Source: Polyangiaceae bacterium
GTDB lineage: Bacteria > Myxococcota_A > Polyangia > Polyangiales > Polyangiaceae
Assembly (NCBI GenBank): GCA_029941785.1
Contig: JAPYTK010000019.1
Span: 1 to 43,780, forward strand
Length of the DNA: 43,780 nt
Direction of reading: 5' to 3'
Part shown: positions 1-35,643 of the stretch, one piece after another
How the letters are laid out: every line of letters begins with the position of its first letter
Position numbering within the stretch: the stretch's first letter is position 1
Position numbers and translations under genes: made by a program
Notes under the pieces: model-generated
Database searches by the model: none
Seen by the model: the letters and a program-made list of their open reading frames with translations, nothing else
What the model was told of the DNA's origin: nothing

Positions 1-3000
1 GACCGCCGCCGCCGCCACCACCGCCGCCGCCCGTCGCCCCGCCCGGACCGGCGCCGCCGCCGCCGCCCGCGCCACCGCCAGGACCTTCGTCCACGGTCTT
101 GGTCAGCACGATGCTCGCCGCCGCAAGATTGACCAGCGGCGCCTTGATGGTGACGCCTCCTCCATCGACGACGACCTCGCTCGCGCCGCACTTGAAACTG
201 ATCTTGCTCGAAGCGTTCACCATGTGAAGCGCCCCGATGAAGGTCGCGTCCCCGCCCGCCGCAACCTGGATGTTGCCCGCGGCCTTGTCGACGATGGCAC
301 CGCCCACGCTCATCGTCTTGGCCCCGCCGACCTCTTCGCCTTCATCCCCGCCGCTCAAGACCAGCAAGCCGATCGCGCTCTCGGTCTTGTCCGCGCCGCA
401 CACCTCGGTGCGGCCACCCATCACCAGCTCGATGCGGGCCGCGCCGATGTTCTGCGTTCGCGTCGCAGCAACCTTGGTGTTGATTTGGGACACCGCCACC
501 GTGGCGCGCAGGGCCCCGATCGATTCGCCGTAGGACGCGGCGACCTTGTGGATGTTGTGCCCCGGTCCGACCGCGCAATCGGCCGCCGCGTTTCCGCTCA
601 CGCCCCCCGGTGGTCCGGGTACGTTCTTGCCGCTCTTGCCCGCCACACCGAGCGCGTCCTTCAGGCCGCTCGCCGCCCCCTTGACGCCCGCGTCGATCGC
701 CTTGTTCGCCATCGCGTCGAGCCCGGATGCTGCGCTGAAGTCCTTGCCCGCCGCAACGCCCTTGGCCGCGCTCTCGAGCGTGGGAGGTGGAGGCTTTCCG
801 CCTTTGCCTCCACCTGCACCTTTCCCACCGTCACCGCCTTCGCCGCCACCGCCTTCGCCGCCACCGCCTTCGCCTTCGCCTTCGCCGCCTTCGCCCGCGC
901 TGCCACTCTTGCCAACGCTCTTGCCGCCCAATCCGGCCTTGCTCGCCAGATCGCCCGCCGCGCCGCGTAGTGGCTTGGGCACCGCGCTCTCCGCTTTGCT
1001 CATGGCGGCGTCCTTGACCTGTTTGCCAACCTCACCCGGCGTGGGCAAGCCCGCCGCCTTGGCAGTCGCGTCCGCCACGCCTTTCAAGTCGCCGCTCTTG
1101 GCCGCCTCCATGCCCTTCTGGACTTGGCCGACCTTCTCCTGCAGCTCGCCGATCGGGCCCATGACCTTGTCGACCTTGTCCTTGACCGCCGCGTCGAGCT
1201 TCTTCATCGCCTCGGCGGCTTTCTCCTTGAGCGCGGCGTTCGCCTCGGCCGCGGCCAGATCGATCAAGCCCGCGATCGGGTTGCCGTCCATCTCGAACTG
1301 GTTGCCGCCCACCGTCGTGATGTCCGCTCCCCCGCAGCTCAGCCCCAGCACGGCGTCCACGTTGACCTTGCGGTTCGCCCCCACGCTCACCGCCTGCGCG
1401 CCCGACACGGTGTTCATGTAGCCGCTCGTCACCCGCACGTTCTGGTTGGCGCCGACGTTGATCGTGCGACTCCCGCCCACCGATTGCTTCTCGTCGCCGC
1501 CGGTCTTCTTGTCCTTCTTGCTGCCCGTTCCGATCTTCTGATCCTTTTGCGCCTTGACGGAGATCTCTTCCTTGCCCGCCTGGTCTTCGAAGCGCACCTC
1601 GTTTTGGCCCGCCCCGCCCGGCGAGGTGGAGCTACCGAGCGCCGTTCGAGTCTTGCCTTCGGGCAACTCGTATGGCGGCATATACCGCCCGTTGAACAAG
1701 CGCCCCGTGACGATGGGCCGGTCCGGATCGCCCTGCTGGTACTCGACGAGCACTTCCCAATCGACGCGCGGCAAGATCATCGAGCCTGAGGTCTGCGGTT
1801 GGGTCGTGCGGATCCAACACGACGCGCGGTCGTCGAGTGATTCGGCGAGATCCCAATGCATCTTCACCTTGCAACGACCAAACTCGTCGGTGTGGATGTC
1901 CTCGGGCTCGCTGCCCTCCGGCGCCATCACGATGGCCGTCTGCGGTCCATGGATGACGGGCTTTTCCGTAGTCTGCGGCGTCCGATAAGGCACCGCCTCG
2001 GGGAGCAGCCAGGCTCGAACGCGAAGCGGTGCGTCCGGCTGCTCCGCGCCATCCTTCGAGTCGGCGGCGTGGACGGCCTCGTATACGTGAATCGTCCGCG
2101 TGACGACGTACTTGCCGTCGAGCCCCCGCGGTGTATCGACCAGCTCGATCTTGCGGCCCGGGCTGAGACGCGCCGCGCTGGACTGGATCTCGATCTCGTG
2201 GCGACGCACCTGCTCGGCCTCGAGCTTGACCCGCGCGAGGCGTTTGCCCTCCGCGGGCTCCGTGAACCGCCCGGGGTAGTCGAAGTGCGCCAGATCCGTA
2301 TGAAGATCCGACTCCGCTTCGGAGGTCAGATCGAGATCGGGGCGCTCAAAGTCGTAATCGTCGAGCACGAACTTCCCGCTCACCACGCGGTGCTGCTCAC
2401 GGATCGAATACGCCACCTCCTCGCCGACGTTCATCTGGCTAGGGCTGAGGAAGCGCAAGCGCTCACCTCCCTGTAGCGGAGCGCAGCCCCGACTGTCATC
2501 CTCGAAGACGAGCTGTTCGCCATCTTCACCGCTGCGCGCCGAAAAGAAGATCCCCTCCTCTTCGAGCAACCGACAACAAAACGCCGACGCGTTCTCACCG
2601 TACTGCACGCAGTACGCGCGCTTCGGGTACGTCTCACCGAGCTTCCACTGTTGCCGGGCGGGCGGGATTCCATGCTCGCTCAGCACCGCGCCCACAATGT
2701 CGACGACGCTCATCTCTTGGAAGATGCGACTCGTCACGCTGCTTTCGAGCAGTCCCATTTGTCCGCTCAGCTCGATGTGCATGGCCCACTGCCGCGCCGC
2801 TCCGTCCGCCGGCGAGGCGACGCTCGATGCTCCTCTCACGATCCCCACGAGCTCGTGCTTGACCTCGCCGTAACCAAAACGCAGCACGCCGCGGCGCCCA
2901 AGCAACGCTGCCGGATCCACGTAGTCCAGGAAGCGCACGTCGAGCTCGGCAGTGGTGCTCTTGCCCAGCTGTCGCTCGACGCGAAACGAGACCACGCGGT

Positions 3001-3043
3001 GGGCCGCGATCTCGTTGATGGCAAAGCTGGTGTGGAGGGTCAT
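1..3043 (-). CDS. vgrG: VgrG type VI spike protein with large internal insertion (3' end cut by window edge)
   Basis: Type VI secretion tip protein, at least 1014 residues, still open at base 1. The start is the ATG at 3043, 11 bases after the stop of the preceding vgrG; no good ribosome site is visible, so translation is probably coupled. The gp27-like N-terminal part spans about residues 1-340 and the gp5-type OB fold about 384-455 (HTDEFGR, ILPRVDWEV, GDPDRPIVTGR). A beta-helix of short SVG/VGG repeats starts near 480. Oddly, the beta-helix is interrupted at about 590-815 by an Ala/Lys-rich, probably helical segment, a Gly/Glu-rich run (about 716-753) ending in Pro residues, and a second helical piece. 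It then resumes with SIGALRATVAVSQ-type repeats. The visible end turns Gly-rich again. VgrG identity is clear; the role of the insertion is unknown. Confidence 0.93.
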   Translation of the reverse strand, partial: MTLHTSFAINEIAAHRVVSFRVERQLGKSTTAELDVRFLDYVDPAALLGRRGVLRFGYGEVKHELVGIVRGASSVASPADGAARQWAMHIELSGQMGLLESSVTSRIFQEMSVVDIVGAVLSEHGIPPARQQWKLGETYPKRAYCVQYGENASAFCCRLLEEEGIFFSARSGEDGEQLVFEDDSRGCAPLQGGERLRFLSPSQMNVGEEVAYSIREQHRVVSGKFVLDDYDFERPDLDLTSEAESDLHTDLAHFDYPGRFTEPAEGKRLARVKLEAEQVRRHEIEIQSSAARLSPGRKIELVDTPRGLDGKYVVTRTIHVYEAVHAADSKDGAEQPDAPLRVRAWLLPEAVPYRTPQTTEKPVIHGPQTAIVMAPEGSEPEDIHTDEFGRCKVKMHWDLAESLDDRASCWIRTTQPQTSGSMILPRVDWEVLVEYQQGDPDRPIVTGRLFNGRYMPPYELPEGKTRTALGSSTSPGGAGQNEVRFEDQAGKEEISVKAQKDQKIGTGSKKDKKTGGDEKQSVGGSRTINVGANQNVRVTSGYMNTVSGAQAVSVGANRKVNVDAVLGLSCGGADITTVGGNQFEMDGNPIAGLIDLAAAEANAALKEKAAEAMKKLDAAVKDKVDKVMGPIGELQEKVGQVQKGMEAAKSGDLKGVADATAKAAGLPTPGEVGKQVKDAAMSKAESAVPKPLRGAAGDLASKAGLGGKSVGKSGSAGEGGEGEGEGGGGEGGGGEGGDGGKGAGGGKGGKPPPPTLESAAKGVAAGKDFSAASGLDAMANKAIDAGVKGAASGLKDALGVAGKSGKNVPGPPGGVSGNAAADCAVGPGHNIHKVAASYGESIGALRATVAVSQINTKVAATRTQNIGAARIELVMGGRTEVCGADKTESAIGLLVLSGGDEGEEVGGAKTMSVGGAIVDKAAGNIQVAAGGDATFIGALHMVNASSKISFKCGASEVVVDGGGVTIKAPLVNLAAASIVLTKTVDEGPGGGAGGGGGAGPGGATGGGGGGGGGG
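834..896. repeat. Short tandem GC-rich repeats encoding the VgrG Gly/Glu linker
   Basis: Imperfect tandem copies of cgccttcgccgccac and shorter cgcctt units. On the minus strand they encode alternating Gly and Glu residues in the linker of the first VgrG. Such tracts can change length by slippage, so linker length may vary between strains. Confidence 0.7.
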
Positions 3044-3054
3044 CGGGTAGGGGC

Positions 3055-5283
3055 CTAGTTGTCGAGCACGAGGGCGGCGGTTTCGGGGCAGACCCCGTCG
3101 AGCTTGATGGTCGCGCCGGCGATCGTCACTGAGGCGGGCGTGAGGGTGAGCGTCGAGCCTCCGCAGACCACGGTGAGCAAGCTCTTCGCCGCGTAGGTGA
3201 CCTCCGTCGCCTTGGTGTAGTGCAGACCGCCCACCGTCTCGCTGATCGCGCCATCGGAGTTGTCCTTGATGTCACCCTTGCTGATCACGGCGACCGCACC
3301 GCCAACCGTCTGCGTCATCGCGCCGCCGACCTTCACGCCACGCCCCGCCGTGCTGAGCACCGCCTTCAAGGCGCCGATGGTCTCGACCCGAGATCCGCTG
3401 GTCACCACATTGTGACCCGATGGCGTCATCTGGATGAGCGCCCCTCCAACAGTGTCGTTCATCGTCGAGAGGGTGGACTCCTCGACGCTGCCAGCGACGA
3501 GATCGATCTGCATCCCACCGACGGCGAGCTCGGAGGTTCCGCTCACCAGCGCCCGGTGATCGCCTCCCACGGTGAGGTCGCGATTGCCGCCGATCGCGAG
3601 CGAGTGCGCGCCGCCCATCTCGTCGACGAGGTAGGTCGCCGAGGCCGTCTTCTGATCCGCCCCAACGCCCCAGGTCTGCGATCCGCCCACGTTGGACTGA
3701 AGCGCACCGGAGACGTCCAGGTTCTGATCCACGCCGATCGAACGCGTCTCATCGCCCACGACCGAGTCGGTGCAGTTGTTTCCCGCCGCCACCGACATGT
3801 TCTTCGAGGCGTTCATCATCATCTGCTCCTTGCCCTTGGTGTCATCGAAACGAAGCTCGTTGACCCCCTCACCTCCAGGGCTGGTCGCGGTCTGAATCGT
3901 CGATCGCGCCTTGTGTTCGGGAAGCGCGTAGGGCGGAGGCTTTTTCGCGTTGTACATCCGGCCCACGATGATCGGCTCATCGGGATCGCCCTCGACGTGG
4001 CGCACCGCGACCTCCCATCCTACGCGCGGGGTCATCAGGCCGCCCGCGAGGGGGAGCTGCGTGCTGCGAACCCAACAGCTGCTCTGATCGTCACCCTTCC
4101 CGGTGTGATCCCAGAGCGCTTGCAGCTTCGTCCGGCCGTACTCGTCGGGGTGGATCTCGCTTCCAGCCGGTCCGGTGATCTGGGCCAGATCATAACCAGG
4201 AACCGAGCGGGCGTTCGGCATCACCTTCGGACGCATCGCCAACTCGGCCGGCATGGCCGTGAACGACATGCGCTGCACGTCGCCGCTTGCCTTACTCTTG
4301 CCCCAGCGCGGCGCGACAAACTGATAACTGACGGTGAGTACGCGCAGCTCGATGTTGAGCGGCTCGTAGGGGTGACCCGTGATGGAGAAACGTCGACCGG
4401 GCAGCAGATGAAGCGCCCCCGTTCCGCCACGAATGGTCGCGCGCTCAGCCTGGTGTGATTCGAGCCTGACCTGGGCGCGACGCTCGATGGTGTCGGGCTC
4501 AATGGCGCGCGCCGGATACAGGTAATCCTCGAGGGTGCCCGCGCCGTCAGCCGCCTGCTCGGCTTTCACCTCGAAGTCCGGCCGCTCGAAATCGAAATCC
4601 CGCACCGTGACCCGATCGCTGACGATGGCTCGACCGTACTCGAGTCTCGCAACGTGGTCGCGGGCGGCGTCCATCCCAAACTCGTGTTGGTAAGTGAGCT
4701 GGAGCGGGCCGAGGACCTCACCGAAGTCAACGTCGCTGAAGCGGATCTTGTCGACGCCCTCTTCGATCTCGACCGTGAAGCTTATCCCTTCTTCGGCGAG
4801 TAGTCGTTTGATGAAGGCCAAGTCGGTCTCGCGGTGCTGTACGCAATGAAGACGCGGCTCGTAGGAGCCCGTGAGCTTCCAGTCTTGATCGACAGGATCG
4901 ATCCCCGCCCGCGAGAGCACATCGGCCACGATGCTCTCGGTCGTCATCTCTTGAAACACCCGGGTGTCGCTGCGCATCGACAGCCGCCACAGACGCGACA
5001 CGCTGACGAGCTTCACCGCAGGCAAGGCCGACTCGGCGCCGAGATGTTCGGCTTCGATGATCAATCCAGCAAACGTGAAACTGCGCTCATCCGCCTCACG
5101 GGTGACGCTAAGCTCGAGCGTTTGACCGATGAGGGTGGCCGGATCCGGTCCACCGTCGTTGTCGGTGAGCACGCAGGTGCAGGTTCCGATCTCCGAAACG
5201 GCGAGCTCGATCTCGACCTCGAGCGCCGTCAACGCTTGGCCGTCGATCTGAACCTGAACACCGAGTAGGGCTGCGTCGCTCAT
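3055..5283 (-). CDS. vgrG: VgrG type VI secretion tip protein, second copy
   Basis: Complete 742-residue VgrG. The gp27-like part covers about residues 10-345, including the family segments RVFQEMTTESIVADVL and LLAEEGI. The gp5 OB fold is about 378-447 (HPDEYGRTKLQALW, TPRVGWEVAVRH, GDPDEPIIVGRMYN). A beta-helical tail of repeated VGG/SVA/SIG turns spans about 480-742, and there is no extra C-terminal effector domain. The ATG at 5283 is preceded by AGAGGA, which lies next to the TAG stop of the upstream vgrG (5291-5293), so the two genes are probably translationally coupled. VgrG trimers cap the Hcp tube and carry effectors; no PAAR tip gene is visible here, so the tip must come from elsewhere. 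Confidence 0.95.
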   Translation of the reverse strand: MSDAALLGVQVQIDGQALTALEVEIELAVSEIGTCTCVLTDNDGGPDPATLIGQTLELSVTREADERSFTFAGLIIEAEHLGAESALPAVKLVSVSRLWRLSMRSDTRVFQEMTTESIVADVLSRAGIDPVDQDWKLTGSYEPRLHCVQHRETDLAFIKRLLAEEGISFTVEIEEGVDKIRFSDVDFGEVLGPLQLTYQHEFGMDAARDHVARLEYGRAIVSDRVTVRDFDFERPDFEVKAEQAADGAGTLEDYLYPARAIEPDTIERRAQVRLESHQAERATIRGGTGALHLLPGRRFSITGHPYEPLNIELRVLTVSYQFVAPRWGKSKASGDVQRMSFTAMPAELAMRPKVMPNARSVPGYDLAQITGPAGSEIHPDEYGRTKLQALWDHTGKGDDQSSCWVRSTQLPLAGGLMTPRVGWEVAVRHVEGDPDEPIIVGRMYNAKKPPPYALPEHKARSTIQTATSPGGEGVNELRFDDTKGKEQMMMNASKNMSVAAGNNCTDSVVGDETRSIGVDQNLDVSGALQSNVGGSQTWGVGADQKTASATYLVDEMGGAHSLAIGGNRDLTVGGDHRALVSGTSELAVGGMQIDLVAGSVEESTLSTMNDTVGGALIQMTPSGHNVVTSGSRVETIGALKAVLSTAGRGVKVGGAMTQTVGGAVAVISKGDIKDNSDGAISETVGGLHYTKATEVTYAAKSLLTVVCGGSTLTLTPASVTIAGATIKLDGVCPETAALVLDN

Positions 5284-5290
5284 GGTTCCT

Positions 5291-7519
5291 CTAATCGAGC
5301 TTCAACGCGCCCGCCGCCTTGCGAATGAGCGCCGCCTTGATGGCGATCTTGGAGCCCTTCAAGACGACTGGCCCACCATTGAGGTTGATCGCCGAGCCCC
5401 CTCCTTTGAAGTGGCCAATCCCGCCGAGCAGCTTGATCGTCGACGCGGATACCTCGATATTTCCGCCCGCCATACGAACATGTGCGCCGCCCACCAAGCG
5501 CGTCACGCTCGCCGCTTTGCTCGCGAAGTTCGCGACGAGGTGGATCTCCCCGGCGCTCATGTTTTGGCTCTTGGCGCCCGCCACCTCCTCGGCGCCCACG
5601 CCCGCGATGATCTCGGCTTTGAGCGCGCCGACCGTCTCGTCGTAGGTCGAGCCGTGCGTCTCGTTGATCGTGGCGGCGCTCGCTTCGATCTGCACTGCGC
5701 CAACGTCCCGGGTGATCGACGAGCTCACGAAGGTGCGCACCCCATTGCAGATCGTAATGCGGTTGGCCGCGATCGAGTGCGTGCGCGAGCCCCCGATGGC
5801 GGCGATGTAGTTCGCCTCCGTGCCCACCACTTCGTTCGCCCCCACCGAGATGCTCTGTGAAGCACACTTGGTCTGAAGCGCATTGCCGACGTTGATGTCT
5901 TGGTTGGCGCCGATGCTCACCGTCTCGTTGGCGCCGACCATCGAGCTCATGTTGCCCGTGACCTTGTGATCTTCCTGGACGCCAACATCTTCGCTTCGCC
6001 CACCACCCACGAAGGTGTTGACGTCCTTCGGGCCCTTGAGACCAAAGCCCTGGCTGCCTCCCGAGTCGTCCGTGCCGAGCTGGTTGCTCCCTGCCCCACC
6101 GGGGGTGCTCAAGCTCTTCATCGCGCTCTTCGCCGCGCCCCCGGGCAAGTCCTCGAGCGTGCCCTGCTTGCCGTTGTACAGCCTCCCGATGGCGACCGGA
6201 CGATCCGGATCACCATCGAGGAACGCCACGGCCAGCTCCCACCCGACGCGCGGCAGGATCATCGAGCCACCGAGGCCGAGCTGTACCACCCGAAGCCAGC
6301 AGCTCGAGGTGTCGTCGCCTTTGCCGGCGCGGTCCCAGTGAAAACGCACCTTCACCCGGCCGAACTTGTCGACGTGGATCGCCTGCTGCTCGTTGGTCGG
6401 CCCGGTCACGATAGCGGTCTGCACCCCGTGGATCTGCGGTTTGCCCGCCTTGCGATCTGCCGCGAACGGCGCGCCTTCCGGGATCCCGGAGAAGGTGTTG
6501 GTGCAGGCCAAGTTGTCGCCCTCTTCGGCACCGGTTTCGTCGGGGCTTTGCTCGCCCGTCGTCTGGATCTCGGTCACCACGAAACGCCCGTTGCAACACG
6601 ACTCCGAAGCACCCTCGACCGAAAAGGGCATTCCGGCAGACAAGCCCACCGCCACGCTCTTGCCTTTCACGGTGTCGGCGTCGGCCCGCAAGCCGTGCAT
6701 ACACGCCTCGGCCCGGCGGACCGCGTCGTCACCAAAGGTGAAGCCTCCGGGATAGGCGTAGTAGGGCATGGGCCACGACCCCGCCTCACTCATTTGCGCT
6801 TCCGGCTTGAGCTGCGGAGACTCGAACTCGAAATCGCGAAGCTGAACGTCGGTCGTTCTGAGACGTTTCTCGCGGCGAAACACCGCGAGCGGATCCGTCG
6901 CGCCAGACAGACCTTGGACCATACCGAACCGTACCTCCGACATGTGAGGCGCAACGGCAAAGGCGCTCGGATCGTCCGCCACCACCATCTTGTGACCATC
7001 GGGACCGTGCTCGAAGAAGTAGAACAAGCCCTCGTCCTCGAGCAGGCGCGACACGAAATTGAGCTCCGTCTCGCGGTACTGCACGACGAACTCGCGGGGT
7101 CCGTACGTCTTGCTGAACCGCCACTCGACCTTCTCGTCCACGCCGGCGTCCGCCAAGACCTCCTTGACGATGTCCACCGTGCTCATGTCCTGGAAAATGC
7201 GCGAGCCTCGACGATGCCCGAGCGTCGCTAGTTGCGGCCTCAGGCGAAGGCGAAAGTGAAGCAGCGTTCCGGTGTGCGCAACGAAACGCGCCTCATCGAT
7301 CAGACCATCGAAATGGCGTAGACGGTTCTCGCCGCCATCGATAGTGACCAGCACGCGCGTCCGCAAACACGCTTCGGCGCGAAAGGCGAGATCTGCGGTG
7401 GCGAACTCGATCTCGCAAGCGTAGGGCGCGCTGAGCTTCTCGCTGGCGTCGAAACGCCTGACGGATGAGTCCGCCGGGAGAGCCTCCCCCTGAACGTGAA
7501 TGGTCGCCACGGAGCGCAT
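5291..7519 (-). CDS. vgrG: VgrG type VI secretion tip protein, third copy
   Basis: Complete 742-residue VgrG, first of the three in transcription order. The N-terminal gp27-like part contains RIFQDMSTVDIVKEVL and LLEDEGLFYFFEHG. The OB fold at about 380-455 contains HVDKFGRVKVRFHWD, ILPRVGWELAVAF and GDPDRPVAIGRLYNGK. The beta-helix tail holds repeated SIGAN/VGA turns and ends in a Lys/Ala-rich segment. The ATG at 7519 has only a weak ribosome site and sits 34 bases after the stop of the 374-aa gene. Same length as the second copy but clearly diverged, so this is an old duplication or separate acquisition rather than a recent copy. Confidence 0.95.
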   Translation of the reverse strand: MRSVATIHVQGEALPADSSVRRFDASEKLSAPYACEIEFATADLAFRAEACLRTRVLVTIDGGENRLRHFDGLIDEARFVAHTGTLLHFRLRLRPQLATLGHRRGSRIFQDMSTVDIVKEVLADAGVDEKVEWRFSKTYGPREFVVQYRETELNFVSRLLEDEGLFYFFEHGPDGHKMVVADDPSAFAVAPHMSEVRFGMVQGLSGATDPLAVFRREKRLRTTDVQLRDFEFESPQLKPEAQMSEAGSWPMPYYAYPGGFTFGDDAVRRAEACMHGLRADADTVKGKSVAVGLSAGMPFSVEGASESCCNGRFVVTEIQTTGEQSPDETGAEEGDNLACTNTFSGIPEGAPFAADRKAGKPQIHGVQTAIVTGPTNEQQAIHVDKFGRVKVRFHWDRAGKGDDTSSCWLRVVQLGLGGSMILPRVGWELAVAFLDGDPDRPVAIGRLYNGKQGTLEDLPGGAAKSAMKSLSTPGGAGSNQLGTDDSGGSQGFGLKGPKDVNTFVGGGRSEDVGVQEDHKVTGNMSSMVGANETVSIGANQDINVGNALQTKCASQSISVGANEVVGTEANYIAAIGGSRTHSIAANRITICNGVRTFVSSSITRDVGAVQIEASAATINETHGSTYDETVGALKAEIIAGVGAEEVAGAKSQNMSAGEIHLVANFASKAASVTRLVGGAHVRMAGGNIEVSASTIKLLGGIGHFKGGGSAINLNGGPVVLKGSKIAIKAALIRKAAGALKLD

Positions 7520-7553: not shown

Positions 7554-8678
7554 CTACCGCGAACTCAACTGCCGGGCGTACGCCTCTCGAGCCGCTCGCC
7601 ATGCCGCGAGCTTCGCCGGGTCCGAACCCAACACGGTGTACATCTGTTCGTCGAGCGCCTTGAGCGAAGCCTCATCCGCCACGGCGTAGCGCGCCAGGAC
7701 TTGAGCACGGTGGTTTGGATAGGTTTCGAGCTCGAGCTGAAGCGCCGCGTGCTGCTCGACGCTGAGCGACAAAGCGGGCACATCAGGAGCCTTCTGCCCG
7801 GCAGTCTCCGCGAGCACATCCGCCGCCAGATCCGCCAGACCTTGGAGACCCGTCGTCTCGCCCCGCAAGGCCGCGGCGATCTGAAGCTCGGACGGGGAAG
7901 CCGAGGCCGGCATGCTCGCAGGCGCTTGCTCATCGAACGGGAGAGCCTCGTCGTCTGGGGGCGCGAACATAGGCAAAGCGCGGGTTTGGTGCGCCATCGA
8001 AGAAGGGGGGGCGGACTGCGGCGGGTGCGGCACGCTCGGGGCCGCAACGGACACCGGCACAACCGAAACCGGGGGCGGCGCGTGCAAGGAGGAGGCCTCA
8101 GGCTCGGTCGCTTCGTTCGGCTCGCTCTCGACGGCAGCCTCGCCAAAGGGAAGAATGGGGCCCAGCTTCGACAGGTCGATAGCCGAAGTTGCGAACGCAT
8201 CGGGCACCACCTTGGCAGCCGCGGTGAGGCCATCCTCCTCCTCCGGCACCTCGTCCGTGGACGGAGCCTCCTCGGGAAGAGGATCCACGGGCTCGGCTTG
8301 GGCAACGCGCTGCGGCGACGCCAGCGCCTTGGCCGCCTCCATCTCGTCCTTGTCCAAGAACGGGACGACGGCCTGAAGCTCGAACACATGGGCGGTGCCT
8401 GTCTCGTATGCCGCAGACAGGTCCGGGCCGGTTTCCGGGATCGGATCTCCGAAATTCGCCGGCCGGTGGGCGCGATACGCACCCTGATAATGCCGACTCA
8501 ACTTCCAGCGACCCCGCGCCGCCTCCTCGCCCATCACCTGGAGCCACTCGCGCTGAGCCTGCGCGAAGATCTCTTCGGCCAAGTCCGCGCGCCTCAAGAC
8601 GACGTCCTGGTGCTCACCGGCGTCAATCTCCGCCCGCAACTCGGCGTACCGCTCAATCGTGATGGCCGCGCTCTTCAT
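7554..8678 (-). CDS. Unknown protein with duplicated end domain, head of the vgrG operon
   Basis: 374 residues, no family recognised. The ends look like two copies of one domain of about 65 residues. Residues about 7-70 (TIERYAELRAEI ... EWLQVMGEEAARGRWKL ... YQGAYR) align by eye with about 306-370 (SVEQHAALQLEL ... QMYTVLGSDPAKLAAW ... REAYAR). Between them lies a long Pro/Ala/Glu-rich, probably disordered stretch (about 120-300). It is the first gene of the run that continues into three vgrG genes, so a role in loading, bridging or adapting cargo to VgrG is an inference from position only. The predicted start ATG is 8678; the divergent gene starts 38 bases away. Confidence 0.8.
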   Translation of the reverse strand: MKSAAITIERYAELRAEIDAGEHQDVVLRRADLAEEIFAQAQREWLQVMGEEAARGRWKLSRHYQGAYRAHRPANFGDPIPETGPDLSAAYETGTAHVFELQAVVPFLDKDEMEAAKALASPQRVAQAEPVDPLPEEAPSTDEVPEEEDGLTAAAKVVPDAFATSAIDLSKLGPILPFGEAAVESEPNEATEPEASSLHAPPPVSVVPVSVAAPSVPHPPQSAPPSSMAHQTRALPMFAPPDDEALPFDEQAPASMPASASPSELQIAAALRGETTGLQGLADLAADVLAETAGQKAPDVPALSLSVEQHAALQLELETYPNHRAQVLARYAVADEASLKALDEQMYTVLGSDPAKLAAWRAAREAYARQLSSR

Positions 8679-8691
8679 GTTCGCGGCCGAG

Positions 8692-8697
8692 ACTATA
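8692..8697 (-). promoter_or_regulatory. Possible -10 element for the vgrG operon
   Basis: TATAGT on the minus strand in the divergent gap between 8678 and 8716. Transcription would start near 8685, giving a very short leader for the 374-aa gene. No good -35 box is seen at normal spacing, so this is tentative. Confidence 0.3.
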
Positions 8698-8715
8698 CCG
8701 CGTTATGGCTTCGTC

Positions 8716-10689
8716 ATGGCCCAAGGACTCGCGCCATCTATCTGGCCACCGTGGTTGCTGGACGTCGAAGACGCCCACGGCCAGCTCCAGCACGCGGTTT
8801 GTCTCATTGAAGACAACGGCGAAGACGCCAAGGATCTGACATCGAGCGCGCGCTCCATCGAGGCCGCATTCCTGCATCTGTACGAGGCCGTCGATGGGAG
8901 GACCGCCGATCGCATGACCGCACTGCAGACGGCAGAAACGAACGCCAAGAATGCGGCCAAGGACATCGCGGAGCAGCTAGAGAGTCCTGGTCCCCTGAGC
9001 GACGCAACGAAAGCACTTCACGAGGCCGCGACCGCCCTGTCGCAGGCGGCCCAGCATGCCCCAGGGCTCGCGCCAGATGCCGCGGACGGCTCGAAACTAA
9101 AAGCGACACGACGCGGCACGCCGCTTCACGCGATGGACCGCTCGTCCTGGACCCCTCGTCTACGTCTTCCCCCCCCGCTCCTTCCCGCCGACATCGCCGC
9201 ACCGATCGACGCGCCGCCGACGAGCTCCTTCGAAGAGCTGGACGCAGTTGACGCTGCAGTGCGAGCCCAAGTCGCCCAATCACTCGAAGAACGCTTGGCG
9301 CAGCCTGAGCCCCCCATCGACACGGCCCCGTCGCTCGAGGCCGACACGCTGTACCACCTCAGTCCAGAGTCGTTCGTGCGCGAAAAAGCGCGACTCTGCT
9401 TCGATGAAGTGGCCATGCTCGCCCTGCAACGCAAACCGCTGCGAGGCGATCACTTCACGATCTCGGACGATGTCGAAACGCGCCTGATCGAGACCGTGGA
9501 CGCCTTCGCGTCCTTCGGCGCCACGGGTGTTGGCGAGCTGGAGACGCTGGTGCTCGACGCGCCGGTCGCCGAACCCAGCCGGCTCTTCGCCGCGAGCTTC
9601 ATCGCGGGCAGTCTCGTCGGCCGCGACGCTCTCGGGCTCATCGACCGCCTCGCGCGCCATCAAGCGACGACCAGCGAGATGCGGCAAGCCATGGGCGACG
9701 CGCTCCGGCTGAGCCGACACCCGATGTTGGACTTGATGATGAACAGTTGGCTCCAGGAGTCGAACGTGGAGCTGCGCCGGATCGCCCTGGAGGTGTTGGT
9801 CGCGAGGGGCGCCGTGAGCGACGCGCAACTACAGCAACTCTCCCAGGACCGTCCCCGGATCGCCGCGTTGACCTTGCTTCCCATGGCGACCGGCGGCCAT
9901 CCCGCACTCGAAGAGACCCTGGAGCAGGCGCTGCAGAGCGATCACCCGGTGTTGCTTGAGGCCGCGTGGGTCGCGCAGGCCTTCGCTTCCCAGGGGCGTG
10001 CCGCGCGCAGTCTTCGCCGCGCCCTCGATGGCGCTCACGGAGACCGCGCCGCCCGCTGGCTCGCCATCATCGGCGCTAGCGACGAGGACACCAAGTACAT
10101 CATGCAGCGCGCCTTCACCGATCCGACGGAAGAGAACCTACAGACCTTGGGTTGGCTTGGCGCCGTGGGATCGGTCGATCATCTCATCCGCTTGCTCGCG
10201 CGAAGTGAGGGAGACACGGCGTTGACGATCGGCAGCGTCCTGCAACGGATCCTCGGCGCCAACCTGACCGCCGAAGTCGACATCGATCCCGAAAAACTCC
10301 TCGATCCCGATCCACCCGAGCCGAAAGCGGAGGGACTCATCCCGCCACCCACGCTCGCACGCGAAGTGAGCGATCCCCGGCACATGCCGGCAGAAGGCTC
10401 TCCGGACACGCTGGAGCTATCCGATCCCACCGCGGGAACATGGCGCCAATGGTGGGACGAAAATCGAGAGCGCTTCGATCCGGAGCTGCGGTATCGCTGG
10501 GGCTATCCGCACTCGCCGCTCACCTGCTGGGCCGAGCTCGACGGGGCGCTCCTCCCACCATCCACGCGCGAGCAGGTCGCCCGGGAGATTTGGATCCTGA
10601 CGCAGCAGTACACACCCTTCGACACGCGCGACTGGGTGAAACAACAGCAGCAGACGCTCGCAGCCTGGAAGCCTAAGCTCGGCGGCTGA
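8716..10689 (+). CDS. HEAT-repeat-like protein, resembles TIGR02270 family
   Basis: 657 residues from the ATG at 8716; the frame also allows starts at 8659 and 8713, but those reach into the divergent gene. The N-terminal third is helical and Ala-rich. The middle (about 230-520) has recurrent helical pairs of HEAT type, such as LMMNSWLQESNVELRRIALEV and LEQALQSDHPVLLEAAW. The C-terminal part (TWRQWWDENRERF, LRYRWGYPHS, REIWILTQQYTPFDTRDW) resembles the ending I associate with TIGR02270, a family of unknown function found in myxobacteria and near T6SS genes in some proteobacteria. Divergent from the vgrG operon, so an accessory role in effector delivery is plausible but unproven. Confidence 0.8.
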   Translation: MAQGLAPSIWPPWLLDVEDAHGQLQHAVCLIEDNGEDAKDLTSSARSIEAAFLHLYEAVDGRTADRMTALQTAETNAKNAAKDIAEQLESPGPLSDATKALHEAATALSQAAQHAPGLAPDAADGSKLKATRRGTPLHAMDRSSWTPRLRLPPPLLPADIAAPIDAPPTSSFEELDAVDAAVRAQVAQSLEERLAQPEPPIDTAPSLEADTLYHLSPESFVREKARLCFDEVAMLALQRKPLRGDHFTISDDVETRLIETVDAFASFGATGVGELETLVLDAPVAEPSRLFAASFIAGSLVGRDALGLIDRLARHQATTSEMRQAMGDALRLSRHPMLDLMMNSWLQESNVELRRIALEVLVARGAVSDAQLQQLSQDRPRIAALTLLPMATGGHPALEETLEQALQSDHPVLLEAAWVAQAFASQGRAARSLRRALDGAHGDRAARWLAIIGASDEDTKYIMQRAFTDPTEENLQTLGWLGAVGSVDHLIRLLARSEGDTALTIGSVLQRILGANLTAEVDIDPEKLLDPDPPEPKAEGLIPPPTLAREVSDPRHMPAEGSPDTLELSDPTAGTWRQWWDENRERFDPELRYRWGYPHSPLTCWAELDGALLPPSTREQVAREIWILTQQYTPFDTRDWVKQQQQTLAAWKPKLGG

Positions 10690-31729: not shown

Positions 31730-34700
31730 TCAGCCCTGCAGAATCGCCTCGAGGTCGGCCGGTACGCAATCGTAGGACTCCGCCGCCTCCAATAACGCGG
31801 CATTGTGCGACAGGGCGGTGAGGAATTGCCTCTCGTAGGGAGTACCTCGCAAGCCCTGCACGCGTCGTGATAGCGCAGGCATCGCCCGTTTGATGGTGGC
31901 TTGTGCGCCGTTCAGGTCGCCCAAGTCGATCTGAGCGCTCGCGAGCGCGATGTAGATGATCCCCTCGTTGAGCAAACTCGGCGCGCCAGACTCGACGAGC
32001 TGTGCAGCCTCCAGCGCGATGCGCTCCGCCTCCTCGGTCTCGCCGTTCCGCCGCAACGCTTCGGCCCAATAACCAAGCGCGACAGGCAGCACGTCGCGGT
32101 TGTCCGTTTGCCGATACGCCTCCGCGGCGATCGCCAAGAGCTTGCTCGCACGTCGAAGGTCGGCCTGCTCACCGGACGCCACCAGCTCGCAGCCCCGATA
32201 AAACAAGACACCGAGGGTCACGCGGTCCCTCGTGATCCATCCCCCTTGTGCCGCCTCGTCTGCGGTCTGGCGCGACTCGGCCAGTACCGGTAGCAGCGAC
32301 GGCTCGCCGCCGAAGTGGGCAGCCCATCCGAGCAAGATCATCTTTCCCAGTCGGAGCGTACCGGTGCTGCCGATCTCTTCCGCCATGGCGAGACCAGCGT
32401 CGATTTCCGTACGCGCCTCATCCTTGGCACCAATGGTCGTGAGCGCAAAACCGAGATTGATGGTGAGCATCGCTTCCCGGTTGCGCAAACCCGCAGCACG
32501 CGCCGCTCGGGCTGCGTTCCTTCGCGCGTCAAGAGCGGAAGCAAGTTCGCCACGGGTCTGTCGGACGACCGCGAACGTTTGCCACGCATCCACGGCCACC
32601 GACGACAACTTGCGCTGGCGCGCAAGCTCCAGAAGCTGTTCTGCCGCGTGTTCCGCCTGCTCAAGCTGACCGGCGAAAGCATAGCGAGCGGCAAGAGTCG
32701 CGGCACATCTCGCCTGCTCGTCAACCAATCCGAGCTCGGCCGATCGGCGAGCAGCCTCGGTAAGACGCTCTTCGACATCACCGCCAGCTGAACACGCGTG
32801 ATCGTAACGCGCGCGAGCACCCAATGTCCGGACCTCGCACGCCTCATCGTAGGCGCTACTCGCCATCGATTCGATCGCCTCGCTCCGGTCAGCGGAGCGC
32901 TCGTCGAGCCTTGAGTGGATCTCGTCGAGAAGCATGGCTCGCATGAATCGAGTGCGGGGCTCGGTAGCAAACGTCAGCGCACGGTCCGCCATGTTCACAG
33001 CGGTAGCGAGCGCGTTGGCGGCCAAGGCTCGGCGCGCGGCTCGCTCCCAAAACCCCGCAGCGAGTTCGTGTTCTTCACCGAGATCGTAATGCTCGGCTAC
33101 GGTCGCTGCATCTTCGCCCGCACGAGCCAACCAAGCACCGGCCCGCGCGTGAAGATCGGCCTTGAGCGCGTCACTCACCGAAGAGTACGCCACATCACGG
33201 ACCAGAGCGTGCTTGAACCAGAACTCACGGGTCTTCGCGAAACGGGATTGCGCTTGCTCCACGATGATCTCTGCATCGCATAAGGCCTCGATCGCTGCGC
33301 CGGCAGCTTCCGCGCCGAGCTCGCCCAAGGCCTCATCCCACCCCGCCGTGCCGAGCACGCTTAGACGCGAAAGAGCGTCGCGCGCCCCTTCGTCGAGCGC
33401 ATCGAGACTGACCTGGATGGCCGCCTCGATCGTCGGCACGTTGACCTCTTCTTTGCCTGCGGCGACGACGCGGGCAAGCTCTTCGGCGAAGAGCGGAGAG
33501 CCGGCCGCCTTGACCGCGATCTGCATCAACTTTTCGTCGTCGACCTCCGCCGCCCTCGTGAGCGCGCGGGCGATTTCGATGGTGGCCTGTCGCCCAATCG
33601 GGCGTAAATCGACGCGCTGATGCTCGGCCCCGCGAAAGGCCTCGCGGTGCGCTCGAAAGAATTCGGGTCGCGCGAGAACCACGAGAAAAAGTGGCCGCGA
33701 AGAAAATCGCGACAACAAGTGAGCAAACCATGCCACGCTCTCCGTGTCCGCCCACTGCAAGTCCTCGAGCAGGATGATGCAGGGCTCACGTCGTGAGACC
33801 TTGAACATCAACTCGGTCATCGCCAAGTACAGGATGTCGCGCGCACGGTGTGCCGCGATGTCCTGAGGGAAGGGCTCACCGGCCAACAGACTGGCGAGCA
33901 GTCCGTCTTCGTCGTGAACGAGCTTGAAGTCGTCGAGTCGTTTGACAACCTCGAGGCTGTTGGCACCCCTCGGAATGCTCAACATGTCATTCAACATGTC
34001 GGCCGCCGTACCCAGCGCCCGCGCGCGACCGTAGGCGTCGCAGTGTGCCTGAATGATACGCGGCGACACGCCTCCGGCGCGGCCAAGGCTGTTCATGAAT
34101 TCGCGCGCCAAACGCGTCTTGCCGATACCCGGAGGCCCCGCCACCGACACCACGCGGGCACAGCTGTCCTCGATGCAGCGGTCATACGCGTTCAGCAAAC
34201 GGGTGAGCTCGTCCTCGCGTCCGACGAAGGGCGTCACCGTCGCGCCACCGCGACGAAGCGGAACCACACCAATCAAGGTGTGCCGATCACCCGACCGCGG
34301 CTGAAACTCGAAGCGCGTGCGAGCCAACTCCGCCGTCGTCTCGTCCGTCAGAAGCTCACCGGCCGAAGCATCCCGGGCCAGCGCGGAAGCGCGATCGACG
34401 ACGTCCCCGACGGGCCGGGCCAGATCCACGAGCGCGCGGCCCGTGGCGACACCTACCGAGGCCCCCGCTTCAATGAGTTCGCGCCCGATCTCGATCGCCT
34501 GCACGGCCTCGCTGCCGTGAGCTCGCCGGGCGCCGAGAAACGCGACGAGCGAGTCGCCCCCGAGAGCGACCGCTTCGGCTCCGTTCTCGCGCATCCGCTC
34601 AAGATGTCTCAAGCGCGCGTCGCCCGTCGGCCCCGCGAGCACCACGACGGTGGTCACCAATCGACTGACGCTCGACAAGGCCGCTACATCCTGGCTATCG

Positions 34701-35596
34701 ACAGCTGCAGCGATGGTGGGCAAATCGGGGTCTTCGGCCAAGGTCGCAAGGCGTTCGCCGACCTCCCACGCGGCCGGCCGGTCGTCCGCCTCGATTTGCA
34801 GCATGTCGGCGATCAGTTCATCCAGCGGGTCGGGAATGTTGACGACCAGCTCGCGAAGGCGCTGCGGAGGCGTGGAGACGAGCTTGGCCAACAAGGCGAC
34901 GGGACTGGCGCCTTGGTGAGGGGGGCGCCCCGCGATCAACTCGTACAAGGTGGCGCCAAGTGAATACACGTCGCACGCACTGTCGATCGCCCCATCGGTG
35001 CGCGCCTGCTCCGGCGCCATATACGCGGGAGTACCCGCCATGGCCCCCACAACGCTGAGGCACTCGGGCTCGGCAACAGCCACACCAAAATCGACCAATT
35101 TGAAAAGTGGAGCGTCGCCATTCGATTCCGCCCGCGAAGCGACCGCGAAAACGTTGGTGGGTTTCACGTCACGGTGGACGACTCCAGCCGCGTGAGCCGC
35201 GGTGAGCGCCGCGGCGATCTGACGCGAACACTCGATCGACTCCGGCAAGGTGAGCGGAGCCTCGCTCTGGCGACGGGACAGATCGGCACCATCGAGCCAC
35301 TCCATCGCAATGAACGGGGTCTGCGGCGCAAAACGCTGGCCGCAGATCGTGACCTCGTCCTCGCTCAGATCACCGTAGTCGACGACCCGCACGATGTTGG
35401 GGTGCTCGAGGGAACACAGAAGTTCCCCCTCCGTCCTCAGCCGCTCGCGCTCCGCTCCATCCACGTCGTCAGCCAAAATCACCTTGAGCGCGACCATCCC
35501 CCCGCTCTCGCGATCGGCTGCGCGGAAAACGACGCCGGACGCCCCACGACCTACTTCCTCGTGGACGTCGAATCGTGCGAGCGCAGAGCTACCCAT
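31730..35596 (-). CDS. Kinase-degenerate cyclase-ATPase-TPR signalling protein
   Basis: 1288 residues. The N-terminal Hanks kinase spans 8-285, with Lys38, HRDVKPTN (D143 catalytic), DFG at 169-171 and MAPEQ. Residues about 311-433 resemble a class III nucleotidyl cyclase domain: GGDSLVAFLGARRAHGSEA, VGVATGRA, VGDVVDRASALA and ELLTDETTAEL match. The first metal-binding Asp motif is missing, so cyclase activity is unlikely. A STAND/AAA-type ATPase begins with FVGREDEL (457-464), Walker A GPPGIGKT (487-494) and Walker B CIILLEDLQWAD (606-617). The C-terminal 500 residues are TPR-like helical repeats. No membrane segment. The layout resembles PknK-like and AAA-fused cyclase regulators. Targets are unknown. 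Confidence 0.93.
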   Translation of the reverse strand: MGSSALARFDVHEEVGRGASGVVFRAADRESGGMVALKVILADDVDGAERERLRTEGELLCSLEHPNIVRVVDYGDLSEDEVTICGQRFAPQTPFIAMEWLDGADLSRRQSEAPLTLPESIECSRQIAAALTAAHAAGVVHRDVKPTNVFAVASRAESNGDAPLFKLVDFGVAVAEPECLSVVGAMAGTPAYMAPEQARTDGAIDSACDVYSLGATLYELIAGRPPHQGASPVALLAKLVSTPPQRLRELVVNIPDPLDELIADMLQIEADDRPAAWEVGERLATLAEDPDLPTIAAAVDSQDVAALSSVSRLVTTVVVLAGPTGDARLRHLERMRENGAEAVALGGDSLVAFLGARRAHGSEAVQAIEIGRELIEAGASVGVATGRALVDLARPVGDVVDRASALARDASAGELLTDETTAELARTRFEFQPRSGDRHTLIGVVPLRRGGATVTPFVGREDELTRLLNAYDRCIEDSCARVVSVAGPPGIGKTRLAREFMNSLGRAGGVSPRIIQAHCDAYGRARALGTAADMLNDMLSIPRGANSLEVVKRLDDFKLVHDEDGLLASLLAGEPFPQDIAAHRARDILYLAMTELMFKVSRREPCIILLEDLQWADTESVAWFAHLLSRFSSRPLFLVVLARPEFFRAHREAFRGAEHQRVDLRPIGRQATIEIARALTRAAEVDDEKLMQIAVKAAGSPLFAEELARVVAAGKEEVNVPTIEAAIQVSLDALDEGARDALSRLSVLGTAGWDEALGELGAEAAGAAIEALCDAEIIVEQAQSRFAKTREFWFKHALVRDVAYSSVSDALKADLHARAGAWLARAGEDAATVAEHYDLGEEHELAAGFWERAARRALAANALATAVNMADRALTFATEPRTRFMRAMLLDEIHSRLDERSADRSEAIESMASSAYDEACEVRTLGARARYDHACSAGGDVEERLTEAARRSAELGLVDEQARCAATLAARYAFAGQLEQAEHAAEQLLELARQRKLSSVAVDAWQTFAVVRQTRGELASALDARRNAARAARAAGLRNREAMLTINLGFALTTIGAKDEARTEIDAGLAMAEEIGSTGTLRLGKMILLGWAAHFGGEPSLLPVLAESRQTADEAAQGGWITRDRVTLGVLFYRGCELVASGEQADLRRASKLLAIAAEAYRQTDNRDVLPVALGYWAEALRRNGETEEAERIALEAAQLVESGAPSLLNEGIIYIALASAQIDLGDLNGAQATIKRAMPALSRRVQGLRGTPYERQFLTALSHNAALLEAAESYDCVPADLEAILQG

Positions 35597-35606
35597 ACTA
35601 AGAAAA

Positions 35607-35643
35607 GCCTAGCCCGAGAGGGGCGCCGCGCCTAGCCCGAGAG
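35607..35643. repeat. 14-bp direct repeat between divergent genes
   Basis: gcctagcccgagag occurs at 35607-35620 and 35630-35643, a 23-base period, just upstream of the kinase start (35596). It may be a regulator site or a local duplication; only two copies were seen. Confidence 0.5.

What the first reader, a model, noticed from the sequence alone, without database searches (positions are those of the whole stretch)
560..1290. VgrG beta-helix interrupted by a ~225-residue helical and Gly/Glu-rich insertion
In the first VgrG, the repeat spike stops near residue 590, is replaced by Ala/Lys-rich helical sequence plus a Gly/Glu/Pro linker, and resumes near 818 with the same kind of turns. Cargo in evolved VgrGs is normally at the C-terminus. 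A loop projecting from inside the spike would be a different way to carry a domain or bind an effector.
Basis: partly seen in the sequence, partly recalled or inferred. Interest (0 to 1): 0.6.

Follow-up and report, generated by a model that had tools for sequence, protein, structure and literature searches.

The report
Side arm inside one VgrG spike
In Polyangia (soil myxobacteria), one of three neighbouring genes for the needle tip of the type VI secretion weapon carries a conserved helical arm looped out of the middle of the needle, which suggests a needle built from three different chains with a single built-in attachment arm.

Summary
VgrG-C (window 2-3043, minus) has a β-helix stub, an insertion of ~240 residues (586-825; nt 569-1288), then ~160 residues of β-helix. 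The insertion is not ordinary β-helix: it is amphipathic helix, Gly linker, helix. It recurs in every complete orthologue and in the own-genome paralogue, at the same site.

The wider finding is that C is always the third gene of a VgrG triplet, A-B-C. In 27 complete triplets A and B never carry the insertion. Without it, C's spike is as long as A's and B's to within 1-2 residues (A 300.8±1.4, B 301.7±1.0, C 300.9±0.4; 24 triplets), while the insertion varies from 140 to 239. A related arm occurs in third VgrGs of other Polyangia families. Other triplets carry different helical insertions at about the same axial level, again in one chain only, and some carry none.

Best reading: a heterotrimeric spike whose C chain loops out one lateral helical arm, used for docking or loading rather than as a swapped toxin. 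The clean excision and matched length are shown by sequence. The heterotrimer, the arm's fold (low AF2 confidence) and its function are inferred. New variant of a known kind.

The parts
2..3043 (-). VgrG-C (P0001), third gene of the triplet; runs off the contig end
   Evidence: Pfam Phage_GPD 25-321, Phage_base_V 386-450, Gp5_trimer_C 469-573; NCBIfam TIGR03361
1289..1546 (-). beta-helix block 1 of VgrG-C (residues ~500-585)
   Evidence: AF2 strands of period about 8, pLDDT mostly 65-94
569..1288 (-). the insertion (residues 586-825), bounded by MDGNP and GPGH motifs
   Evidence: length-matching; excised in B chains
1088..1288 (-). amphipathic helical segment of the insertion (residues 586-652) with conserved GNP start and MGP(I/V) break
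   Evidence: AF2 helix 589-649 (pLDDT about 36-57); helices 55-89 and 95-115 in the orthologue model; helical periodicity
935..1087 (-). smaller helices of the insertion (residues 653-703), with conserved G-D and LP motifs
734..934 (-). Gly/Glu/Pro linker (residues 704-770), length-variable among orthologues
   Evidence: no secondary structure, pLDDT about 31-44; gapped region
569..733 (-). last helix (771-797) and return segment ending before GPGH
   Evidence: return segment 800-826 is as conserved as the beta-helix (mean identity 0.555)
86..568 (-). beta-helix block 2 of VgrG-C (residues 826-986)
   Evidence: AF2 strands, pLDDT mostly 75-94
2..85 (-). Gly-rich C-terminal tail, cut by the contig end; may lead to a C-terminal cargo
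   Evidence: orthologue L082 continues past such a tail into about 240 further residues with an AHEAGH motif
3055..5283 (-). VgrG-B (P0002), 742 aa, no insertion
5291..7519 (-). VgrG-A (P0003), 742 aa, no insertion
7554..8678 (-). 374-aa protein directly upstream of VgrG-A, probably in the same operon; unknown family

Best explanation
VgrG-A, -B and -C are three diverged chains that together form one heterotrimeric T6SS spike. Chain C leaves the shared beta-helix at a corner about 137-139 residues past the OB domain, forms an amphipathic helical arm on a flexible Gly-rich tether, and returns to the same place. The spike therefore carries one lateral arm at a fixed height and azimuth. The arm most likely works as a docking or loading site for an effector, accessory protein or baseplate partner rather than being a toxin. 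Shown by sequence: the insertion, its clean excision relative to A and B, the fixed A-B-C order, the matched spike lengths, and conservation. Inferred: heterotrimerisation, the arm's fold, and the docking role.
For: Twenty-seven complete A-B-C triplets, always in this order, with gaps mostly under 30 b; the insertion is in C only. Spike lengths from the OB end: A 300.8+/-1.4, B 301.7+/-1.0, C without insertion 300.9+/-0.4, in 24 triplets; insertion 140-239. Distance matrices of A, B and C correlate at r 0.96-0.98, and several genomes hold two or three whole triplets. Third-chain VgrGs of other families carry a homologous insertion at the same site. Other triplets carry different helical insertions near the same axial level, in one chain only. 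Both beta blocks are confidently beta in AF2 and the insertion is helical. The insertion keeps its motifs across orthologues at 43% mean pairwise identity in its hairpin and is not exchanged for other domains, unlike polymorphic toxins.
Against: No trimer model or experiment. AF2 confidence in the insertion is low (about 31-57). Equal lengths could partly reflect common descent of the three genes. Correlated distances also follow from linkage and the species tree. No partner was found that goes only with the insertion: DUF2169 neighbours occur in all nine insertion-free triplets too. The homotrimer reading is not excluded.
Confidence: 0.5

Rival explanations
1. C forms its own homotrimer with three arms; A and B make alternative spikes for the same secretion system, as in bacteria with several interchangeable VgrGs.
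For: Most solved VgrGs are homotrimers (own knowledge). Weak matches of the insertion to Lpp-type alanine zippers, which are trimeric coiled coils, would fit three arms meeting.
Against: Fixed A-B-C order, near-contact genes, joint duplication and co-divergence in every locus, and matched spike lengths. Zipper matches are weak (E 0.0096 at best, 3 of 25 members).
Confidence: 0.27
2. The insertion is a cargo or effector domain, for example membrane-active amphipathic helices, delivered from inside the spike.
For: Ala-rich amphipathic helices; evolved VgrGs carry cargo, and one orthologue has a further C-terminal extension.
Against: No known toxin family; no swapping of unrelated domains within the C orthologues; maximum 19-residue hydropathy is 0.7-1.3 in the four members tested, below a usual transmembrane span; no gene downstream of C is shared by all loci as an immunity gene would be.
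Confidence: 0.12
3. The helical stretch continues the spike axis as a coiled coil between two beta-helix segments and lengthens the spike.
For: Ala-zipper-like pattern and AF2 helices.
Against: The two beta blocks of C together equal the uninterrupted spikes of A and B to within about two residues; the long Gly-rich tether does not suit an axial rod; a B chain fits the C profile with the insertion removed and no gap.
Confidence: 0.06
4. A neutral low-complexity expansion in a tolerant surface turn.
For: The middle of the insertion is Gly-rich and varies in length.
Against: The helical part and both junction motifs are conserved (GNP, MGP, LP, GPGH; invariant columns), with 43% mean identity in the hairpin against 52% in the beta-helix.
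Confidence: 0.05

Closest known systems
T6SS VgrG/TssI spike (T4 gp27-gp5 fold)
   Same: Hub, OB and beta-helix architecture; curated family cut-offs passed
   Different: An insertion within the beta-helix itself, in one chain of a conserved triplet
T4 gp5 with its lysozyme domain in mid-chain
   Same: A domain carried in the middle of the polypeptide and hung beside the needle by linkers (PMC3004832)
   Different: In gp5 the domain lies between the OB fold and the beta-helix and all three chains carry it; here it lies inside the beta-helix and two of three genes lack it
Evolved VgrGs
   Same: Extra sequence on a VgrG
   Different: Cargo is normally C-terminal; here it is internal and conserved
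Heterotrimeric VgrG spikes proposed in Vibrio cholerae and Aeromonas dhakensis
   Same: Different VgrGs in one spike (PMC8668125)
   Different: The Aeromonas paper concludes that effectors, not hetero-trimerisation itself, set the requirement; here three genes sit in a fixed-order operon with matched spike lengths
Tvp Class II accessory systems (TvpA = DUF2169, DUF6484-type TvpC, TvpD = PRK06147)
   Same: DUF2169, PRK06147-like and small OB plus short-prism genes beside many triplets (PMC13373197)
   Different: The described systems are built around a VgrG rather than a VgrG triplet; here the accessory set is not specific to insertion-bearing triplets

Membership tests
VgrG/TssI | gp27-like hub, OB domain and gp5-type trimerisation beta-helix | tested here: met
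   Pfam and NCBIfam above cut-off
Evolved VgrG | effector domain appended at the C-terminus | tested here: inconclusive
   The window protein is cut by the contig end in a Gly-rich tail; most orthologues end right after the beta-helix, one (L082) is extended
Evolved VgrG | extra segment matches a known effector domain | tested here: not met
   No Pfam or PDB match for the insertion beyond weak coiled-coil hits
Heterotrimeric VgrG spike | distinct VgrG chains in one trimer | not testable with these tools
   Only single-chain prediction is available; indirect support
T4 gp5-like mid-chain cargo | domain between OB fold and beta-helix | tested here: not met
   The insertion lies about 137-139 residues into a spike of about 301
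Tvp Class II accessory system | DUF2169 and PRK06147 (TvpD) genes near vgrG | tested here: met
   For orthologous loci: 17 and 18 of 27. Not for the window itself, where the contig ends within vgrG-C
Tvp Class II accessory system | DUF6484-type TvpC | tested here: inconclusive
   Small OB plus short-prism gene in 14 of 27 loci; DUF6484 only at E 0.0089 in one member, below cut-off

The most novel reading that the evidence does not exclude
Polyangia build intrinsically asymmetric T6SS spikes from three dedicated VgrG chains, and evolution has placed different single side arms at one axial level of these spikes, giving each spike one defined lateral docking site.
Probability: 0.5. Interest if true: 0.75.

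Novelty: new variant of a known kind. Interest (0 to 1): 0.6.

Why it matters
VgrG spikes are mostly drawn as symmetric homotrimers with cargo at the tip. A fixed three-gene spike with one arm emerging from inside the β-helix would show how a threefold object can present a single attachment site, would make the open question of VgrG heterotrimers directly testable in one operon, and would mark a site in the spike that tolerates large insertions.

Tried and rejected
Insertion as unaligned ordinary β-helix: rejected by the profile match to B chains and by helical periodicity. Known domain in the insertion: none in Pfam, only weak coiled-coil hits in the PDB. Partner specific to the insertion: DUF2169 and PRK06147 genes accompany insertion-free triplets as well; Rhs genes were detected beside 16 of 34 insertion-bearing and 0 of 9 insertion-free triplets, but the groups are related by descent and distant Rhs may be missed, so this is only a lead. 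Foldseek on the monomer model: only weak hits, the best being VgrG and the R2 pyocin spike, E 0.48 or worse. A regex measure of the insertion was useless and dropped. Homology of the second insertion type to the first: only the entry strand and GNP motif align (hhalign E 7e-4, probability 26%, 34 columns), so not claimed. Viral contigs: no relative. Published reports of this arrangement: none found in seven library searches.

Full report
Observation. VgrG-C is encoded at window 2-3043 on the minus strand and runs off the contig end. It has the gp27-like hub, the OB domain and the start of the gp5-type β-helix. The octad repeats stop at residue 585. A stretch of about 240 residues follows (586-825, nt 569-1288). 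Repeats resume at GPGHNIHK (826) and end near 986 in a Gly-rich tail.

Is it more than chance? A paralogue on contig C60 of the same genome has the same layout, and about 30 orthologues occur, mostly in the same family. In alignments of 25-26 of these, the insertion has invariant positions at its start (GNP), in its body (LP) and at its return (GPG), and the flanks align throughout. Mean pairwise identity is 0.52 in both β blocks, 0.43 in the helical hairpin, 0.29 in the linker region and 0.56 in the return segment. Hydropathy has a helical period in the insertion and a strand-like period in block 1.

Structure. AlphaFold2 on residues 460-992 with 26 sequences gives both β blocks as regular short strands with pLDDT mostly above 75. 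The insertion is one long helix (589-649), smaller helices (653-702), a disordered Gly stretch (704-770) and a helix (771-797), all at low confidence, about 31-57. An orthologue with a short linker gives the same picture, with the first helix broken at MGP. The last strand before (582-586) and the first after (829-834) lie next to the junctions, so the insertion leaves at a turn. Only single chains could be predicted, so stacking in a trimer was not tested directly.

The triplet. C is the third of three adjacent VgrG genes (A 5291-7519, B 3055-5283, C 2-3043). I collected 27 complete triplets. All have the order A-B-C, gaps mostly under 30 b, A of 731-749 aa, B of 735-761 aa, and the insertion in C only. 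A, B and C are old paralogues: roughly 440-830 bits within a class against roughly 200-340 between classes outside the window. Their distance matrices correlate at 0.96-0.98, which shows inheritance as a unit but is also expected from linkage. Named carriers include Sorangium cellulosum, Polyangium, Minicystis rosea and Byssovorax.

The length test. From the end of the OB domain to the C-terminus, A has 300.8±1.4 residues, B 301.7±1.0, and C without the insertion 300.9±0.4, in the 24 triplets whose C chain is complete to the end of the β-helix; the insertion itself ranges from 140 to 239. A profile of C also fits the C60 B chain in two pieces that abut to the base, with only the insertion missing. 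The simplest reading is that all three chains run in register along one spike and C loops out.

Generality. Third VgrGs in triplets of other families (L090, L092, L116) have a homologous GNP-helix-Gly insertion at the same site, and the C profile finds further matches across the insertion in other families of the class. A second insertion type of 114-118 residues starts with GNP or GSP and in most members ends with GPGH. A third type sits in the first VgrG of other triplets (L096, L197, and a short one in L193). All lie near the same axial level. No triplet examined has insertions in two chains. Nine triplets have none, with three spikes of about 286-312 residues.

Neighbourhood. Beside many triplets lie a DUF2169 gene (17 of 27), a PRK06147-like gene (18 of 27), Rhs genes (14 of 27) and a small OB plus short-prism gene (14 of 27). 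This resembles the Tvp Class II accessory set (PMC13373197). It is not specific to the insertion. In the window the downstream side is missing.

Function. The insertion is kept in every complete orthologue, keeps its motifs, and is not swapped for other domains, which is how a structural or docking part behaves rather than a polymorphic toxin. Docking is therefore my preferred reading, at modest confidence; the partner is unknown. T4 gp5 shows that a mid-chain domain can hang beside a needle (PMC3004832), but there it lies before the β-helix and in all three chains. VgrG heterotrimers have been proposed before, with contested necessity (PMC8668125).

Verdict. The looping-out is well supported by sequence. 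The heterotrimer is likely but unproven, and the function is open. I found no report of this arrangement in the searched library, which lacks most subscription journals.

Noticed in passing
window 8557-10686 (+): Match over most of TIGR02270 (E 2.8e-15, below cut-off), HEAT-like; relatives lie near seven of the VgrG triplets.
   Followed up: partly
window 7554-8678 (-): 374-aa protein upstream of VgrG-A with a conserved ~70-residue N-terminus and a Pro-rich middle; unknown family.
   Followed up: partly
window 1-85: The contig breaks inside a poly-Gly coding stretch of VgrG-C, so a C-terminal cargo may be missing from the assembly.
   Followed up: no
L082 7717-11304: Orthologous VgrG-C with a C-terminal extension of about 240 residues with an AHEAGH motif, possibly a metallopeptidase.
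   Followed up: no
L104 6932-9720: In the Minicystis rosea chromosome one of three VgrG-C genes is split by a frameshift after the insertion.
   Followed up: no
L194 2222-5917 (-): A VgrG with a C-terminal extension of several hundred residues that looks like a long coiled coil.
   Followed up: no
L197 4444-8889 (-): Third VgrG of a triplet with a C-terminal extension, while the first chain of the same triplet has a mid-spike insertion.
   Followed up: no
genome G000: Fifteen DUF2169 matches in one genome, pointing to many VgrG-PAAR loci.
   Followed up: no
window 31733-35608 (-): Large Ser/Thr kinase with AAA and TPR regions.
   Followed up: no
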